In this document: positions 42,172 through 49,252 of the stretch, one piece after another | Layout of the letters: each line of letters opens with the position of its first letter | Numbering within the stretch: the first letter of the stretch is position 1 | From: Halobacteriales archaeon YIM A00013 | Lineage (GTDB): Archaea > Halobacteriota > Halobacteria > Halobacteriales > Haloarculaceae | Direction of reading: 5' to 3' | DNA: 64,000 nucleotides | Assembly: GCA_025041195.1 (NCBI GenBank) | Contig: JAKCFM010000001.1 | Coordinates: 744,001 to 808,000 of the forward strand | Program-made: the position numbers and the translations under genes | The notes under the pieces: generated by a model | Database searches by the model: none | Told to the model about the DNA's origin: nothing | The model's input: the letters and a program-made list of their open reading frames with translations, nothing else

Positions 42172-42303
42172 GATGGATAAGTGTTTTGGCATCCCTCGGA
42201 TTTCGGCTGCGTTGCTCACTTGAGCGCAACTATCAAAAAAGTAAACAAAAGCCAGTACTGTGGCTCAAACTACAGTAGAGAATGTGGATTACACGCAAAA
42301 TGC

Positions 42304-42320
42304 AGTGGGTTGGGGCAGAT
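42304..42320. repeat. attL, 17-bp direct repeat
   Basis: Identical to 49176-49192 (sequence AGTGGGTTGGGGCAGAT). The flanking bases differ on both sides, so the repeat has clear limits. Confidence 0.85.
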
Positions 42321-42331
42321 ACCGATTTTCG

Positions 42332-43429
42332 TCATTCGTCACCACCCCCGTCAAGCCCAAGACGATCCAGGTGTTGCCGCCTGCGCTTCTCCATCTCCTC
42401 CATGTGATTCGGTTTATCGTAGTGCGTCTCGATGACACGCACTGAAGAGTTGACACGCTTGGAAACTACGTCAGCAGGAACGCCTCTATTGCGTTGCCAT
42501 ATGATCGATCCTGTCCGAACCTGGTGCGGACTCCGCGAGGATGGACATTGGCTCGCAGTCGCTTGAACGAGATAGTCACATGACTCTGGATCTTCACCGT
42601 GTGGACACTGAGAATAATGACATGGGACTGTAGCGAGATACATCCATGCCCGAATTGTGTTCGTAACCGGCCGCCCATCCTCGCTGGCTAACAGAGGCAC
42701 ACGACCGTAGTCGTCGTGTACTCTGTGTCGATTCGTTCGGATGTATTCGTCCAGAATATCGCAGGTATCTCGGTTGAGTCCGACGACACGCTCGCCGTCT
42801 TGTCCGTTCTTTAATGGCGTATCTTCTCGTGGCTGATGTTCGAATCGAACGCATTTACTCCCGGAACTATAATCCTCCAGATCAAGCGAGCGAAGTGCAC
42901 CCAATCGAGCACCTGTAAACCAGGCGAGTTCGAGCAGTGCGTGATCACGTGAGGCTCGCTTAGTCGGTGACGCTCGATAGTGATCGATGAGTTCGATTGC
43001 ATCGTCTGGATGGAGTTTTGTGTCGTCTACCGCTGCATCCCGTGGCACATCCGGCGGATCTACCTTCGATGGAAGCGATTCGTCAACCAGCTCAACCTGT
43101 GCACAGTATTCGAGAAAGCCTTGGATTGTACCCATCTCGTGACTGAGTGTCACTGGCGCGAGCTCGCGGTTGCGCCTCTGTGTCTCGTACGTCTCGATAT
43201 CCCATCCCGTGAGTTCTCTGAGTGTGTCGATCCCCTGCTCTTCGCAGAAGTCGATGAAGTGCTTGAGACGGTAATGGTACGACGAAACCGTCGATTCGGC
43301 TTTCGAAACCTTGAGCTTACTAAGCCACTGCTCACTCGCCTCACGTGGCGAAAGATCCGGTATACGATCCCCACCGTCTGGAGTACCAGCGACCGTAAGC
43401 GTGTATGTCCCTGCGTTGGATTCACTCAT
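42332..43429 (-). CDS. Tyrosine-family site-specific integrase
   Basis: 365 residues of the XerC/phage integrase family. An N-terminal SAM-like core-binding domain (SEQWLSKLKVSKAESTVSSY) precedes the catalytic domain with Arg175 in FTGARLGALR, His302 and Arg305 in SPHQVRTGS, and Tyr337 in ETHYDKP. A four-cysteine insert (Cys270, Cys275, Cys284, Cys295) just before the HxxR motif probably binds zinc, as in other halophile integrases. The ATG at 43429 overlaps the stop of the upstream 29-residue gene (ATGA). It would drive integration into, and excision from, tRNA-Val. Confidence 0.95.
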   Translation of the reverse strand: MSESNAGTYTLTVAGTPDGGDRIPDLSPREASEQWLSKLKVSKAESTVSSYHYRLKHFIDFCEEQGIDTLRELTGWDIETYETQRRNRELAPVTLSHEMGTIQGFLEYCAQVELVDESLPSKVDPPDVPRDAAVDDTKLHPDDAIELIDHYRASPTKRASRDHALLELAWFTGARLGALRSLDLEDYSSGSKCVRFEHQPREDTPLKNGQDGERVVGLNRDTCDILDEYIRTNRHRVHDDYGRVPLLASEDGRPVTNTIRAWMYLATVPCHYSQCPHGEDPESCDYLVQATASQCPSSRSPHQVRTGSIIWQRNRGVPADVVSKRVNSSVRVIETHYDKPNHMEEMEKRRRQHLDRLGLDGGGDE

Positions 43430-43515
43430 ACGACACTCACCACCACAGTGAGAATCGACACTACACCGAGCAGTACGAACCACCCAATCCAGAGCAGTTT
43501 GTCGAACGAGTTCAT
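43426..43515 (-). CDS. 29-residue single-helix membrane peptide
   Basis: A frame of 29 codons. Residues are polar at first (MNSFDK), then a hydrophobic helix from LLWIGWFVLLG to the C-terminus VVVSVV. Both ends are locked to neighbours: its ATG overlaps the stop of the DUF4258-like gene by ATGA and its stop overlaps the integrase ATG by ATGA. Such double coupling is hard to explain by chance. It may be a holin-like or anchoring peptide, but no function can be shown. Confidence 0.6.
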   Translation of the reverse strand: MNSFDKLLWIGWFVLLGVVSILTVVVSVV

Positions 43516-43823
43516 ACGCTCACCTCCCGATCACCGTGAACGCCAGGCGCGTACGCCGTAATTGCGACTGGATCGCCAGCACCGAAGCCCACCACAAGCC
43601 GCCAGCGAACCCCACGAACATCATTCTCATAGAGCAGTGTGGAACCTCGACCTGGAGTTACCTCCCCGTGCTTGATGCACGTCTCTACCACCTCACTCGT
43701 GATCGACGGATTACGCCGTCGCTTGAACCGATCGACGAAATGCGTCGTTGGACGAATCTCGCGAGGATTGCGTGGTGGCTTGTCTGTACCTTTCTGCGGT
43801 TTCGTATTTCTGCTATCTTGCAC
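43512..43823 (-). CDS. DUF4258-like small protein
   Basis: 103 residues if the GTG at 43823 is used; the frame continues upstream without a good ATG. The pattern THFVDRFKRRRNP - ITSEVVETCIKHGEVTPG - LLYENDVRGVRWRLVVGF - VAITAYAPG resembles the DUF4258/BrnT-like toxin or nuclease fold (small alpha-beta with basic face). It is first in a chain of overlapping genes leading to the integrase. The N-terminal part is basic and low complexity. Function as a toxin is inference. Confidence 0.5.
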   Translation of the reverse strand: MQDSRNTKPQKGTDKPPRNPREIRPTTHFVDRFKRRRNPSITSEVVETCIKHGEVTPGRGSTLLYENDVRGVRWRLVVGFGAGDPVAITAYAPGVHGDREVSV

Positions 43824-44046
43824 TTGTATTGTAGACGAGGTAACGAACGACCGACGAGCACAGCAGAGCAACGAATTTAACCCCAGTGAACCTAAGATCC
43901 ACCACGGATTGCACCCCCATGCGTGCTCGTCGGACAACCTGCGTGTTGTCTCCGCACGCAAGTGTGTCCGTATTTGTCAGTGCTTGACGAACGTGACTCC
44001 GGCCAAAGAATCGACGTTCGTCAAGTAGACCCTCACATATCGTGAG

Positions 44047-44178
44047 TCACGTCTCTACTTCGTCGAGCAGCGCCTGCACCGCCTCGTTGTAATCGCCCAG
44101 CTCTCGATCCTGCTGGAACGCCTTGAGGCGATCGCGGACAGATTTCTCGACTGTGAGTGACGTAATTGGTAACGTCAT
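44047..44178 (-). CDS. 43-residue ribbon-helix-helix/antitoxin-like protein
   Basis: 43 codons with ATG and TGA. MTLPITSLTVEKSVRDRLKA starts a strand-helix pattern and RELGDYNEAVQALLDEVE the second helix, as in small VapB/RHH-like DNA-binding antitoxins of haloarchaea (DUF7557-like, unverified). It is 223 bases before the DUF4258-like gene, in the same direction, and the two could be an antitoxin-toxin pair. A cluster of palindromes lies 134 bases upstream. Confidence 0.6.
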   Translation of the reverse strand: MTLPITSLTVEKSVRDRLKAFQQDRELGDYNEAVQALLDEVET

Positions 44179-44311
44179 GAAATTGGTTTTGAGATGGAAG
44201 GTTAAAAGATGATGGGTTCATTCTCACAACAGATTGTAGATATTTGTACTGCGTGTAGTGATGTGAGCTACCAGTGCGAAAGTGCGAATTCGGACGCGTT
44301 GGAACTTACTA

Positions 44312-44351
44312 AGGTTAACCTGTTTACGGTAAACGCGCGTCATACTGTATG
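44312..44351. promoter_or_regulatory. Cluster of three palindromes, possible operator
   Basis: Three perfect dyads follow one another: AGGTTAACCT (44312-44321), GTTTAC-G-GTAAAC (44322-44334) and CATAC-T-GTATG (44341-44351). They lie in non-coding sequence upstream of the antitoxin-like gene and downstream of the cysteine-rich gene 44440-44667. Confidence 0.5.
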
Positions 44352-44439
44352 ACAAAATGTGGTTACTTAGTTATTAACGAACTCAGATGCCCTGATAAAT
44401 GGCGAGGCGAAGCCGGCTAAGACTACGCCTACAGCCCGT

Positions 44440-44667
44440 TCACGGCCAGCGAAGGCTAAATGGCAGTTTGAACGCCTCGCTATCTCTTGATCGTTCGCCA
44501 CAGAAATGCCCGACACTGCACCGGAGTATGGTTCTCTCTGCTGGGTTCGTGCTCGACCGTTCTGTGTGGATCGAGCGACGGCACCACGGTTTCACACACT
44601 CATCAATCGGTATCTCAACGCCATCACGACCGATACTTTTCTCTACGTTAGGTTCGTTAGCATCCAT
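44440..44667 (-). CDS. Small cysteine-rich element protein
   Basis: 75 residues from ATG 44667 (MDANEPNVEKSIGRDGVEIP). The middle has CVKPWC and, after a polar stretch, CSVGHFC, two cysteine pairs that could bind zinc. The C-terminus is basic (SLRWP). I do not recognise a family; codon use is ambiguous and a frame of similar length exists on the other strand. Confidence 0.4.
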   Translation of the reverse strand: MDANEPNVEKSIGRDGVEIPIDECVKPWCRRSIHTERSSTNPAERTILRCSVGHFCGERSRDSEAFKLPFSLRWP

Positions 44668-45084
44668 TGGTGTTCTCCTCGCGTAAGCGAGCTGCATGAC
44701 ACCACCTGTTCGGATGTTCCAGCATCCGGACGCTTTCGCGTCGTGGCGATGTCAATCAACACCACACAACACTGGATCAAAAAGCTGTCTCTTGGTAACT
44801 AACTGGACAGTGTAGACTGTGTGGACAGTTTCGAAACATGCTGTAGTGAACCCGTGTTTTTATAATTCAAGTACCGCCCGGAGAGTGAGCCGACTCCCGA
44901 GGCGATCGAGGCGAAGTGCATGAGATTGTTTTTTGAAAATAGCTACGCGCGCGTTGGGCGTGTCCGAAAAGTCCGAAAAGACGAACTCGTCACCGGCCGG
45001 CCGTCGACGATCAAGGCGAGTGCCATGGGCTGATTGTTTGTGAAAGCAGCTCGTCGACGGCAAACGTGTTCTCTCGTATCCTAT

Positions 45085-45275
45085 TTTGTGGGGTAACAAT
45101 CTTACCCCATAGATTGAGATAGCTATCCATTATCCAAAGACACGTACCCACAATACACCAATAAGAGGCAAAAATCTCCTATTATAGTAGCCGATAGAAG
45201 CTATCTCACCACATTCTGATTGGTTTGTTTGAGAAATAAAGGATAATACATACTCAATCAGATACGTTCTCAGCA
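45085..45275. other. AT-rich palindrome cluster, candidate element origin
   Basis: Between the first and later repeats lies an AT-rich stretch with TGGGGTAA-CAATC-TTACCCCA (45089-45109), the 10-base palindrome GATAGCTATC (45118-45127) and GATAG-AAG-CTATC (45193-45205). AT-rich DNA with dyads beside repeated blocks is typical of replication origins. No gene is present. That it is an origin is inference. Confidence 0.4.
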
Positions 45276-45557
45276 ATCGCCACCTCTGTTATGGCAACCG
45301 ACGCATGGGGGTTGTTTGTTATCAACCGCTTCGAACGACGGTAAGCCAACGCCAGCCGTCGATTCGTACTGTCACTACAATTCGAGCCAACTACTCTGTT
45401 CGCGCAATCCCATAGCCTACGCGCGCGTAACCCTCTACGAGAACTACGATAGAGCAATCGCATGGGGGTTGTTTGTGAAAGATCGAGCCGACCGTCCATG
45501 AGGTTCGAATCGTCCATGAGGTAGCACCGTGAGCGAACTGATCGAGGCGCACCCCCT

Positions 45558-46125
45558 GTTGCAATACCCCGTGAGGTTCGACGACCGTTGCATGGCTGAG
45601 CAGCTCGATAAACATCCCCAGACGATTCGGTTGCAATACCCCGTGAGGTTCGACGACCGTTGCATGGGGGTTATTTTCTGAGAGAGTTTTTGCAACAGCT
45701 ACGCGCGCGTGACCCTCTCGGAAAACTCGGAAAAGAGTTGCAACACCCCCTGAGCTTCGACGACCGTTGCATGGGGTGTTTGTCTAACAGCGCAACGCGC
45801 GCGCGTGAAGGCTTCCCGAAACTTCTTCTCAGGTTGCAACACTCCCTGAGGTTCGATGGGTACTGTAACGCTTCATCCGAATTTGCAGAAACGCTCTTGG
45901 AAACGTTTCCAGAAGCGTGTTGCAATACCCCGTGAGGTTCGATGGGTACTGTAACTCGATGACTCCCTTGTCGCCCGAGTGTGTAAAAATCTGCAAGCGC
46001 AGATAATTACACATGCACGGTTGCAATACCCCTTGAGGTTCGACGGCCGTTGCATGTTTCTGAATTGGGAAGTACCTACTTCCCAAATGGTTGCAATACC
46101 CCTGGCGGTTCGACGGCCGTTGCAT
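45558..46125. repeat. Seven 36-base repeats with palindromic intervals
   Basis: Copies start at 45558, 45630, 45737, 45833, 45919, 46020 and 46090. Each begins GTTGCAA and carries a GAGGTTCGA-like core (GAGCTTCGA in the third copy, GCGGTTCGA in the seventh); the first two copies are identical. Copies 4 and 5 change their right half to GATGGGTACTGTAA. Intervals are 36, 71, 60, 50, 65 and 34 bases. Several intervals are built round inverted repeats: 45891-45918 (14-base arms, two mismatches), 45981-46012 (14-base arms), 46065-46086 (10-base perfect arms, 2-base loop). No cas genes are in the window. Confidence 0.75.
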
Positions 46126-46287
46126 GGGATTGTTTGCTGAGTACGACGTCGCCACCATGATCGAGGCGAGACGCATGGGGGTTATTTTTGAGAATAGCCT
46201 ACGCGCGCGTAACCCTCTGCGAAAACTCGGAAAACTCAAATTGAGCAATCGCATGGGATGATTGTTTTCTCACCTCCAGCTCGTGGC

Positions 46288-46625
46288 GATCGAGGCGACC
46301 TGGACGCCGGCGAGCCAAAGACCACAGGCGAACACGAAACGATTGGCTACATGGCAACGATGTTTGCCACCCTCCCTTAGGGTAGTGCCTCTAACGAGGA
46401 GGAGAAAACAACAACACATCGCTCGCATAGCGCTCGCTCTTACAACGCACCGCCACCGCACCGAGGCTAAGCGAAAAGTGGCGGTAAGACGGCCGTGCTC
46501 ATAATAACAGACTTTGCCAGATTGTCTTAGGATAGTATGATTAAGCCCGAATCACCAACGATCCGCGAAAATGGTAATGGTTGCTCCCTGAGCAGTACCC
46601 AGCGTGATTACTCACAGCCAGTGCG
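46288..46625. other. Intergenic stretch of the element
   Basis: About 340 bases between the repeat array and the next gene. It contains one last partial block-1 copy and no frame with convincing coding content. Confidence 0.35.
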
Positions 46626-46979
46626 CTACACTACATCGATGAACTCCAAACCCGTGAATGCCTCTTTGCGTGAGCCTGAGCCATTGCTGTAGAGCATTCC
46701 ACACCGATAGATACCCTCTGGTTCCTCAACGATCGATCCTCTCCACTCTTCCCAGTCTGGCCCATCAATCTCAAGCTTGCTGTTGACTGTAAACTCGATA
46801 ACACGCTCTGGAACCACGTCAGAACTGTATGTGTCCACCCGACTCACTTCCTCCTCGAACGTTCTTCCATCGACTTTCACAACGATTGTGTCGCCAATCT
46901 CAATCAGTGGAACATCTAACTCTGCGAGGCGATCAGGATCATTCACAGCTGGAATGTCCAACTCGTCAAGCTTCGTCAT
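46626..46979 (-). CDS. Hypothetical acidic element protein
   Basis: 117 residues, strongly acidic, beginning MTKLDELDIPAVNDPDRLAE. GDTIVVKVDGRTFEEEVSRV and RVIEFTVNSKLEIDG read as a small beta barrel. WEEWRGSIVEEPEGIYRCG ends the core. I do not recognise the family. It starts 39 bases after the zinc-ribbon gene and is probably translated from the same transcript. Confidence 0.65.
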   Translation of the reverse strand: MTKLDELDIPAVNDPDRLAELDVPLIEIGDTIVVKVDGRTFEEEVSRVDTYSSDVVPERVIEFTVNSKLEIDGPDWEEWRGSIVEEPEGIYRCGMLYSNGSGSRKEAFTGLEFIDVV

Positions 46980-47018
46980 GCAAGTACAGTAGGCGTTTTC
47001 GATGGTAAGGCTATGGTT

Positions 47019-47126
47019 TCAGTAAGCGAAGGTACACCCACAATTCTTACAGCTCATCTTATCCTGGGCTTTGCCAGACGGTGGTGAGTTACTGGTTCCA
47101 CATTCTGGGCATTTTGCTGATGCCAT
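47019..47126 (-). CDS. 35-residue zinc-ribbon microprotein
   Basis: 35 codons, ATG to TGA. Two knuckles, CPECG near the start and CKNCGC near the end, are joined by a short basic-polar loop (TSNSPPSGKAQDKMS). This is the layout of the small haloarchaeal zinc-ribbon proteins. A TATA-like TTTATAGGATAAATATG stretch lies about 27 bases upstream. It may act in regulation of the element. Confidence 0.65.
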   Translation of the reverse strand: MASAKCPECGTSNSPPSGKAQDKMSCKNCGCTFAY

Positions 47127-47364
47127 GGATTATTATAATCATATTTATCCTATAAATAATTAGTTATCATGATGTACCTTCACATGATATAGAGTAGCAA
47201 ATAATCCTGGGGCTGACTCAGTTTTGCACCAATACTATACCGAAGATATGAGTCAGAAAATAACTTGTTTATCGACAGAATCAGAGTCAACAGACAAAAT
47301 AACGATCCGAAACACGCAGCTGTCGCTCACGGCCCCCTGCGAACACAACCCGCGATAGTCCCCA

Positions 47365-48984
47365 CTAAGCTATCGCAGACGCCTGTGCCTCTAACTCAGG
47401 CTTATCACGGACCCTTACGTCCTGCTCTGTGAGTACGCCAGCTGCGATCAATCCAGACAACTGTTCAGGCGTCACGCCCACGTCGCAAATGTATTGGAAC
47501 AGCGCACGCTCCGAAGACGATTGCTCATCAGGCTCGTCGCCATCATCACTGTCCGTATCGGAATCCGACCCTTCGCGCGCCTCGATCCGTTCGTCACGCC
47601 GCTCTTGGCGAGCGTTATCCTCAGTTCCAACCGTATCCACGCCCGCCTTCTCGATAGCCTCCTCAACCAGCTCACCAACGTATGGCGAGGCGAAGACAAC
47701 GAGCACCGGATTGCTGATACGCTCCACGAAACCCAACTCTGCGAAACGTCTGACGTGGTATCGTATGCACGAGCGAGACAATCCGGTTTCCTCTTCGAGT
47801 GTGTCGTACGTCGCTCCATCATGGCGTTTGACCACGGAGATGATATCGTACGGAGCCTTCGTCTGAGTCTTCGACACTTCACGCATAACCGGTAGCTCAA
47901 GATCGTCGTAGCGTGCACGGAGATCGTCACGACGCCCTTCGAGGCAAGGCGCGTCGACCAAATCCGCAGCTGCACCGTCATAGAAGTCGTCAGCAACCAA
48001 ATCCGACGGTTCGATCCCCGACCACTGAGCATGTTGAACGACTTTGTCACGCAACTGTGCAACGATAGTATCCCACTCGTCGAGCGTCGGATGAGCGTCG
48101 CGCTTACCCTGCTGATACTCAGATTCAATCTTCGGATGATGCAACGGATCGCCTCGACTACGCTTGTGCCAATCTCCCGCCTGGTAGATCTTGATTTGCG
48201 TCGTGTAGTCCACCGCCTCGAACCCGAGCAAATCCCACCGATCCGACCGAGTTCGAGCCTCAAGCCACCCCTCTTCTTGTCGTCGACGCCAGGTATCTAT
48301 CTCTGCACCACCACCCCAGGCGATCAACCCCTCCGAACGCTGGAGGCATTCGACAGCTGCATCCTTGCGATCGATATCGAACCGGAGATGCGTCTCAAGT
48401 TTTGTAATACGCGCGCTATCGCTAATCCACGAGCCAACGTCACAACCGACAACCTCTGATAAGGGGCTCACACCGCGTAGAATGGCCTCGTGACCGTCGT
48501 TTGGGTATGTCGTTTGGATCTTGCACAACGATCCTTCTCCAAATGGCAGCGGAAAGTCATTGCCGTCAGGATACACCAGCTCACCTGTTTGTGGCGCAAC
48601 CTCGACTTTTAGCGAGATTGGAGGCTTTACCCAGTTATCGCCTCGCTTTTCTCTCAGCTTCAGGATGTATTCGTAGTATTGTGTGTAATCGCTGTCGCTA
48701 TCCTCAACACCCGCCATCCAACCTGAACTGGACAGAAACACCGCGTATTCGCCGTCAGGCAAGAAGTCCGGTTGGTAGTTGCAGAGACGGTAGCCGTCGT
48801 TTGGCTCATCCTCAACCCCCCCGACTCTGTCATACCACAGCTCACGCAGAGCGTCGTAAATGCCCGTATCAGAGAAGTTGCACGAAAGCCCAACCCCATG
48901 CACCACAGGCGACGGATAGAATTCACGAGCCGCCTCGACCGATGGACCAGAGGCGTTTGTGCTACTGTCGTGGGATTGGCTCAT
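47365..48984 (-). CDS. Large element protein with winged helix, possible replication protein
   Basis: 539 residues. The ATG at 48984 follows a strong ribosome binding site (GGAGGTG). The N-terminal 300 residues are mixed alpha/beta and have SARITKLETHLRFDIDRKDA, a pattern like plasmid replication initiators, but I see no catalytic motif of rolling-circle or primase enzymes. Residues from about 365 (PYDIISVVKRHDGATYDTL, TGLSRSCIRYHVRRFAELG) form a winged helix. An acidic low-complexity linker and a short helical end follow. It is the largest protein of the element and the best candidate for starting replication; this is inference. Confidence 0.6.
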   Translation of the reverse strand: MSQSHDSSTNASGPSVEAAREFYPSPVVHGVGLSCNFSDTGIYDALRELWYDRVGGVEDEPNDGYRLCNYQPDFLPDGEYAVFLSSSGWMAGVEDSDSDYTQYYEYILKLREKRGDNWVKPPISLKVEVAPQTGELVYPDGNDFPLPFGEGSLCKIQTTYPNDGHEAILRGVSPLSEVVGCDVGSWISDSARITKLETHLRFDIDRKDAAVECLQRSEGLIAWGGGAEIDTWRRRQEEGWLEARTRSDRWDLLGFEAVDYTTQIKIYQAGDWHKRSRGDPLHHPKIESEYQQGKRDAHPTLDEWDTIVAQLRDKVVQHAQWSGIEPSDLVADDFYDGAAADLVDAPCLEGRRDDLRARYDDLELPVMREVSKTQTKAPYDIISVVKRHDGATYDTLEEETGLSRSCIRYHVRRFAELGFVERISNPVLVVFASPYVGELVEEAIEKAGVDTVGTEDNARQERRDERIEAREGSDSDTDSDDGDEPDEQSSSERALFQYICDVGVTPEQLSGLIAAGVLTEQDVRVRDKPELEAQASAIA

Positions 48985-49094
48985 GGGTAGCACCTCCTAC
49001 TGTCGTCGCGAGCCGGACAGAGTTGCCCCTCTTCGAGAATAACCCCTCCACAGAAGTCACAGATTGGAGGAGCGAGTTCGACTATCTGACTCAC
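48981..49094 (-). CDS. 37-residue cysteine-rich microprotein
   Basis: 37 codons with a GTG start. CDFCGG in the first half and CPARDDSRRC near the end give four cysteines in a CxxC...C...C arrangement, likely a zinc site. The stop overlaps the next gene's ATG (CCATGA), and the ribosome binding site of that gene lies inside this frame, so translation is coupled. Nothing is known of its role. Confidence 0.55.
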   Translation of the reverse strand: MSQIVELAPPICDFCGGVILEEGQLCPARDDSRRCYP

Positions 49095-49175
49095 TGCGAC
49101 CACCCCAGAACACCACTCTGTCTACCTGATTTTGGAGTGAAAACTGCCGCTACCCGAAGACTTCCTATATAAGTA

Positions 49176-49192
49176 AGTGGGTTGGGGCAGAT
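49176..49192. repeat. attR, 17-bp direct repeat inside the tRNA 3' end
   Basis: Same 17 bases as 42304-42320. It covers the acceptor 3' strand and part of the T arm of tRNA-Val, so the tRNA gene remains complete after integration. Confidence 0.85.
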
Positions 49193-49252
49193 TTGAACTG
49201 CCGACTTCCTCCGTGTGAAGGAGGTATCATAACCAGCCTAGATCACCAACCC
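49178..49252 (-). tRNA. tRNA-Val(CAC)
   Basis: 75 nucleotides fold into a cloverleaf: acceptor GGGTTGG with CCAACCC, anticodon stem CCTCC/GGAGG with loop TTCACAC (anticodon CAC, valine), T stem GGCAG/CTGCC with loop TTCAAAT, discriminator A. CCA is not encoded. A TATA-like TTCTTAAGTA with a purine-rich BRE lies about 29 bases upstream, overlapping the end of the next gene. Confidence 0.95.

What the first reader, a model, noticed from the sequence alone, without database searches (positions are those of the whole stretch)
43426..43515. Twenty-nine-residue membrane peptide locked between two genes by ATGA overlaps
The peptide is a single hydrophobic helix; its start and stop each overlap a neighbour by four bases. 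Three genes thus form one translational chain ending in the integrase, which ties integrase levels to a toxin-like protein and a membrane peptide.
Basis: partly seen in the sequence, partly recalled or inferred. Interest (0 to 1): 0.7.

Follow-up and report, generated by a model that had tools for sequence, protein, structure and literature searches.

The report
Membrane mini-gene in an integrase translation chain
A 29-codon reading frame that would make one membrane helix sits in a run of overlapping genes in a small integrated archaeal element; it probably hands ribosomes from one gene to the integrase, and when the element pops out as a circle the run appears to continue across the join to the replication gene.

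Summary
ORF 43426-43515 (-) is 29 codons, strongly hydrophobic, and overlaps each neighbour by ATGA. Its start has a full Shine-Dalgarno motif (GGAGGTGA), which few ATGs in the window have. It has no detectable homologue, and codon usage does not show that it is translated. It lies in a 6.9-kb SNJ2-type integrative element in tRNA-Val (17-bp att repeats; empty site in a sister species) with an IntSNJ2-type integrase and a Rep-Arvir replicase. Integrase relatives commonly overlap a small upstream gene by exactly 4 nt, but the occupant varies and is not a membrane peptide in any other of 134 loci. So the chain is ordinary for this family and the membrane occupant is unique to this element. The 'toxin' label is unsupported. 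An unexpected finding: joining the att copies (excised circle) extends the chain. Integrase -ATGA- att-crossing ORF -GTGA- CxxC ORF -ATGA- Rep gives six ORFs with five 4-nt overlaps. A comparable two-step link occurs in 13 of 20 related elements, against 0-2 of 20 in controls. SNJ2's published ORF26 occupies the same place. I read the 29-codon ORF as a ribosome relay, possibly also a membrane anchor. No expression data exist.

The parts
43426..43515 (-). 29-codon ORF predicting one transmembrane helix; ATGA overlap at both ends
43520..43527 (-). Shine-Dalgarno motif GGAGGTGA, 4 nt before the ATG of the 29-codon ORF, inside the end of the upstream gene
43437..43444 (-). GGTGGTGA, weaker SD-like motif before the integrase ATG, inside the 29-codon ORF (encodes part of its Val-rich tail)
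   Evidence: 5-nt exact core GGTGA
43512..43823 (-). upstream ORF, 103 aa from GTG 43823, DUF4258-like (below Pfam cutoff)
42332..43429 (-). IntSNJ2-type tyrosine integrase, 365 aa
42304..42320 (.). attL copy of the 17-bp core AGTGGGTTGGGGCAGAT
49176..49192 (.). attR copy of the core, the 3' end of tRNA-Val(CAC)
49177..49252 (-). tRNA-Val(CAC), the integration target
   Evidence: empty site in L175
42304..42335 (-). 5' part of the attP-crossing ORF (38 aa only in the circle: 42335 through att to 49091); starts ATGA on the integrase stop; in the integrated state it ends after 21 codons at 42270
49091..49192 (-). 3' part of the attP-crossing ORF in the circle; ends GTGA on the CxxC ORF
48981..49094 (-). 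37-aa CxxC ORF (CDFCG...CPARDD...C), conserved in related elements; ends ATGA on the Rep start
47365..48984 (-). Rep-Arvir-type replication initiator, 539 aa, DUF7845 (PF25227) plus winged helix
   Evidence: family described in PMC13107129

Best explanation
The 29-codon ORF is a middle link in a translational chain of an SNJ2-type integrative element. Ribosomes that finish the DUF4258-like gene restart at its ATGA, read 29 codons, and restart again at the integrase's ATGA. It thus bridges 82 nt that ribosomes could not otherwise cross, and ties integrase translation to the upstream gene. Any membrane function of the peptide is a second, optional role. When the element excises, the same handing-on is predicted to continue past the integrase through an att-crossing ORF and a CxxC ORF to Rep. 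Shown here: geometry, SD motif, att sites, empty site, recurrence in relatives. Inferred: translation, reinitiation, and effect on integrase and Rep levels.
For: Double ATGA and SD GGAGGTGA. In H. volcanii, translation at AUGA overlaps depends strictly on the upstream gene, and SD is not used for de novo initiation (PMC6728339); a gap of about 20 nt nearly abolishes coupling (PMC10666635), whereas without this ORF the gap would be 82 nt. In 41 loci with a conserved small gene directly before the integrase, the overlap is exactly 4 nt in 34. Overlaps at both ends of the small gene recur in L030, L031 and L036. The circle chain is; 13 of 20 elements against 2, 0 and 2 of 20 in controls. Att-crossing ORFs keep the overlaps although their sequence is not conserved (median pairwise score 22 vs 80 for the CxxC ORF), as expected of relays.
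Against: No expression data. No homologue of the peptide, so no test of selection on its frame. Codon usage is neutral. Relay ORFs in relatives are not hydrophobic (KD19 at most 1.42; this one 2.56), so a pure relay role does not explain the membrane helix. Any NTGA start contains TGA, so part of the overlap signal is compositional. One search picked the integrase start nearest to the slot gene, which favours small gaps.
Confidence: 0.6

Rival explanations
1. The peptide itself matters: a single-pass membrane protein that tethers or regulates the integrase or the DUF4258-like protein, with the overlap ensuring equal or local production.
For: Hydropathy is unusual for a short ORF (2 of 384 in the window; none of the ATGA-ATGA frames in 30 shuffles). 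[quoted passage not shown] phiCh1 and some other DUF4258-like loci have small membrane proteins 200-350 nt downstream.
Against: No homologue, no other membrane peptide in this slot in 134 integrase loci, and the downstream membrane proteins near DUF4258-like genes are longer and not overlapping.
Confidence: 0.22
2. The ORF is a chance or decaying frame in the gap between two genes and is not meaningfully translated; the integrase is expressed from its own signal.
For: No homologue, neutral synonymous codon usage; an open frame of this length alone has probability about 0.4. SD motifs also encode the common C-terminal REVS of upstream genes.
Against: SD and both overlaps together with extreme hydropathy are not expected by chance; the same geometry recurs around real genes in relatives.
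Confidence: 0.15
3. A toxin-antitoxin module (DUF4258-like toxin with the membrane peptide or the upstream 43-aa ORF as partner) placed in front of the integrase to stabilise the element.
For: Weak DUF4258 match; a 43-aa ORF at 44047-44178 resembles DUF7557 only at E 0.06; SNJ2 carries HicAB near its integrase operon.
Against: Match below cutoff, no PADLOC hit, no usable fold match; the 43-aa ORF is 220 nt away.
Confidence: 0.05

Closest known systems
SNJ2 integrase operon (IntSNJ2 with Orf2 and Orf3), Wang et al. 2018 as reviewed in PMC8371274
   Same: Same integrase family (38.5% identity); integrase at the element edge beside the att site at a tRNA 3' end; small overlapping genes directly upstream
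   Different: SNJ2 Orf2 (111 aa) and Orf3 (140 aa) are a coiled-coil and a MarR-like protein that raise recombination; here the slot holds a 29-aa membrane peptide and a DUF4258-like protein; overlaps in SNJ2 are 8 and 20 nt
SNJ2 replication operon formed on excision, with ORF26 across attP (PMC13107129)
   Same: Circularisation joins the integrase to Rep-Arvir (DUF7845) through a new ORF spanning attP; the matching SNJ2 ORF ends in GTGA in the record
   Different: Here the link is by 4-nt overlaps at every step in a 6.9-kb element; in SNJ2 the ORF starts 2 nt after the integrase stop; a search of the published text found no mention of translational coupling
[quoted passage not shown]
   Same: AUGA overlap and intragenic SD
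   Different: Published cases are cellular gene pairs; here a very short ORF is the middle link, and part of the chain exists only in the excised circle
Tiny integrative plasmids with pleolipovirus-like replicase in tRNA genes (PMC11431627)
   Same: About 6.5 kb, tRNA at one end, integrase at the other, replicase, no spike gene
   Different: Those use tRNA-Ala and an alphapleolipovirus-type replicase; this one uses tRNA-Val

Membership tests
SNJ2-type integrative element | IntSNJ2-type tyrosine integrase | tested here: met
   Phage_int_SAM plus Phage_integrase domains (the latter slightly below its cutoff); 33-46% identity over most of the protein to pleolipovirus and SNJ2 integrases
SNJ2-type integrative element | Short att repeat at a tRNA 3' end with the integrase next to it | tested here: met
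   17-bp repeat, only two copies in the genome; empty site in sister species G227
SNJ2-type integrative element | Accessory proteins Orf2/Orf3 that raise recombination | tested here: inconclusive
   Two ORFs sit in that position; relation to Orf2/Orf3 was not directly compared and the function is not testable here; many SNJ2-like elements lack them (PMC8371274)
Rep-Arvir replication initiators | N-terminal DUF7845 with central winged helix | tested here: met
   PF25227 E 4.1e-14 at residues 29-339 and MarR-type winged helix near 382-429
Rep-Arvir replication initiators | Downstream origin hairpin | not tested
   No origin search was made downstream of 47365
Translational coupling by termination-reinitiation | Short stop-start overlap with intragenic SD | tested here: met
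Translational coupling by termination-reinitiation | Downstream translation depends on upstream translation | not testable with these tools
   needs a reporter experiment
DUF4258 / RelE-like toxin | Score above the family cutoff | tested here: not met
   18.7 bits (149-aa form) and 19.9 bits (103-aa form) against a cutoff of 25

The most novel reading that the evidence does not exclude
In SNJ2-type elements excision itself closes a ribosome path: only in the circle can ribosomes pass by 4-nt overlaps from the integrase operon through an att-crossing relay ORF and a CxxC ORF to the replication initiator, so replication is switched on at the level of translation by the physical state of the element. 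The 29-codon ORF is a relay on the integrase side of the same path. This would also offer a reason why nonsense mutations in every ORF of the SNJ2 replication operon abolished replication although Rep alone can replicate a plasmid (PMC13107129): polarity through coupling rather than need for each protein.
Probability: 0.4. Interest if true: 0.8.

Novelty: new variant of a known kind. Interest (0 to 1): 0.6.

Why it matters
Short ORFs with no conserved sequence but conserved overlaps suggest that some small 'genes' in mobile elements exist to pass ribosomes along rather than to make a product. In this family the arrangement would link the integrase to replication only after excision. That gives a direct test of why nonsense mutations in every SNJ2 replication-operon ORF block replication. 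It also predicts that frame, not sequence, of attP ORFs is under selection, which may limit which tRNA genes an element can use.

Tried and rejected
Peptide homologues: none in phages, plasmids or 392 genomes of the order, and no exact back-translated match in IMG/VR contigs; the weak hit L187 is not beside an integrase. Integrase relatives in IMG/VR: none confirmed. The count of 107 of 134 integrases with an NTGA start was not used as proof, because NTGA always contains TGA; the homology-backed count was used instead. Decay of a CPxHR slot gene into the membrane ORF: the DNA alignment showed no clear remnant beyond the SD region (two rows, L035 and L036, were in the wrong orientation there and were ignored). 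Single-sequence fold of the DUF4258-like protein: pLDDT 54, no significant match. Folding it with its homologues was not tried, because those sequences came from a source not listed as allowed for that tool. CRISPR reading of the 38-nt repeats was set aside, because spacing and repeats are irregular.

Full report
The ORF at 43426-43515 on the minus strand has 29 codons and reads MNSFDKLLWIGWFVLLGVVSILTVVVSVV. Its start and stop each form ATGA with a neighbour. It is the only hydrophobic one among ten ATGA-to-ATGA frames of 22-60 codons in the window, and 30 shuffled windows gave none. Only 2 of 384 ORFs of 22-45 codons are as hydrophobic. Its ATG is preceded, 4 nt away, by GGAGGTGA; 4 of 1545 ATGs in the window have an SD match of 8 nt or more. 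Codon usage neither supports nor opposes translation.

Setting. A 17-bp repeat at 42304-42320 and 49176-49192 marks an element of about 6.87 kb; the right copy is the 3' end of tRNA-Val. In the sister species G227 the two flanks are joined at tRNA-Val with no element between them (L175). The element has an IntSNJ2-type integrase and a DUF7845 plus winged-helix protein, which is the Rep-Arvir family described for SNJ2 (PMC13107129). Small integrative plasmids of this general kind are known (PMC11431627).

Upstream slot. Among 134 integrase relatives, small genes of several conserved families lie directly before the integrase. Where such a family is recognisable (41 loci) the overlap is exactly 4 nt in 34 (the start nearest to the slot gene was taken, which favours small gaps). 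The closest integrases (57-64% identity) mostly carry a 52-60-aa CxxxC...CPxHR gene there, and in L030, L031 and L036 that gene is itself joined by ATGA to the gene before it. No other locus has a membrane ORF in the slot. So the three-gene chain is a family habit, and the membrane peptide is this element's own occupant. SNJ2's Orf2 and Orf3 sit in the same place and raise recombination (PMC8371274).

Mechanism. In H. volcanii translation at AUGA overlaps depends on the upstream gene and SD does not act de novo (PMC6728339); gaps of about 20 nt nearly abolish coupling (PMC10666635). Without the 29-codon ORF the gap would be 82 nt. A relay role is therefore the simplest reading. The hydrophobic sequence is not explained by it, because att-crossing relay ORFs in relatives reach a 19-residue hydropathy of at most 1.42 against 2.56 here.

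Excised form. Joining the att copies gives, on the minus strand, DUF4258-like -ATGA- 29 codons -ATGA- integrase -ATGA- 38-codon ORF across attP -GTGA- 37-codon CxxC ORF -ATGA- Rep. In the integrated state the ORF after the integrase ends after 21 codons in chromosomal DNA. I then applied one rule to 61 integrase loci; 20 had an att pair in a tRNA 3' end. In 13 of these 20 the integrase stop is linked to an att-crossing ORF that is linked to a further ORF of at least 25 codons. For the integrated flank the count is 2 of 20, and for joins shifted by one or two bases 0 and 2 of 20 (Fisher p 0.0004 against the integrated flank). Some elements are close relatives (L207/L209, L233/L235), so the p value overstates independence, and the rule was written after the pattern had been seen in the first 12 elements. 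A fourteenth case, L195, works with a shorter repeat that the rule did not choose. Att-crossing ORFs are not conserved in sequence; the CxxC ORF is. SNJ2's ORF26, shown to be expressed, holds the same position; in the record an ORF starts 2 nt after the integrase stop and ends in GTGA. A search of the published text found no mention of translational coupling.

A consequence. The SNJ2 study found that nonsense mutations in each of orf19 to orf26 stop replication, while Rep alone suffices for plasmid replication. Strict coupling would make such mutations polar. This is my inference; the authors suggest addiction modules instead.

What is not supported. 'Toxin-like' rests on a sub-threshold DUF4258 match. 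Tying of integrase levels is a prediction. No expression evidence for any of these ORFs was available.

Noticed in passing
window 42335 to att to 49091 (circle only), 48981-49094, 47365-48984: The integrase stop starts an ORF that, in the excised circle only, crosses attP and links by 4-nt overlaps to a CxxC ORF and Rep; the same in most related elements with identifiable att sites.
   Followed up: yes
window 45558-46127: Seven irregularly spaced copies of a 38-nt repeat (GTTGCAATACCCCGTGAGGTTCGACGACCGTTGCATGG) plus several shorter repeat families with CGCGCG between 44900 and 46260; possibly an iteron-like or partition site.
   Followed up: partly
L060-L072 and phiCh1 (L161): Several relatives of the DUF4258-like protein have a small membrane protein about 200-350 nt downstream.
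   Followed up: partly
window 44047-44178: 43-aa ORF resembling a ribbon-helix-helix antitoxin (DUF7557 at E 0.06), 220 nt before the DUF4258-like ORF.
   Followed up: no
window 47019-47126: 35-aa ORF with two CxxC motifs, upstream of the 117-aa ORF 46626-46979 on the same strand.
   Followed up: no
window 42304-49192: The element has lower G+C (52.5%) than the preceding 42 kb (57.5%).
   Followed up: no
published SNJ2 nonsense mutants (PMC13107129): The phenotype of nonsense mutants across orf19-orf26 could be translational polarity rather than a need for each protein (inference).
   Followed up: no
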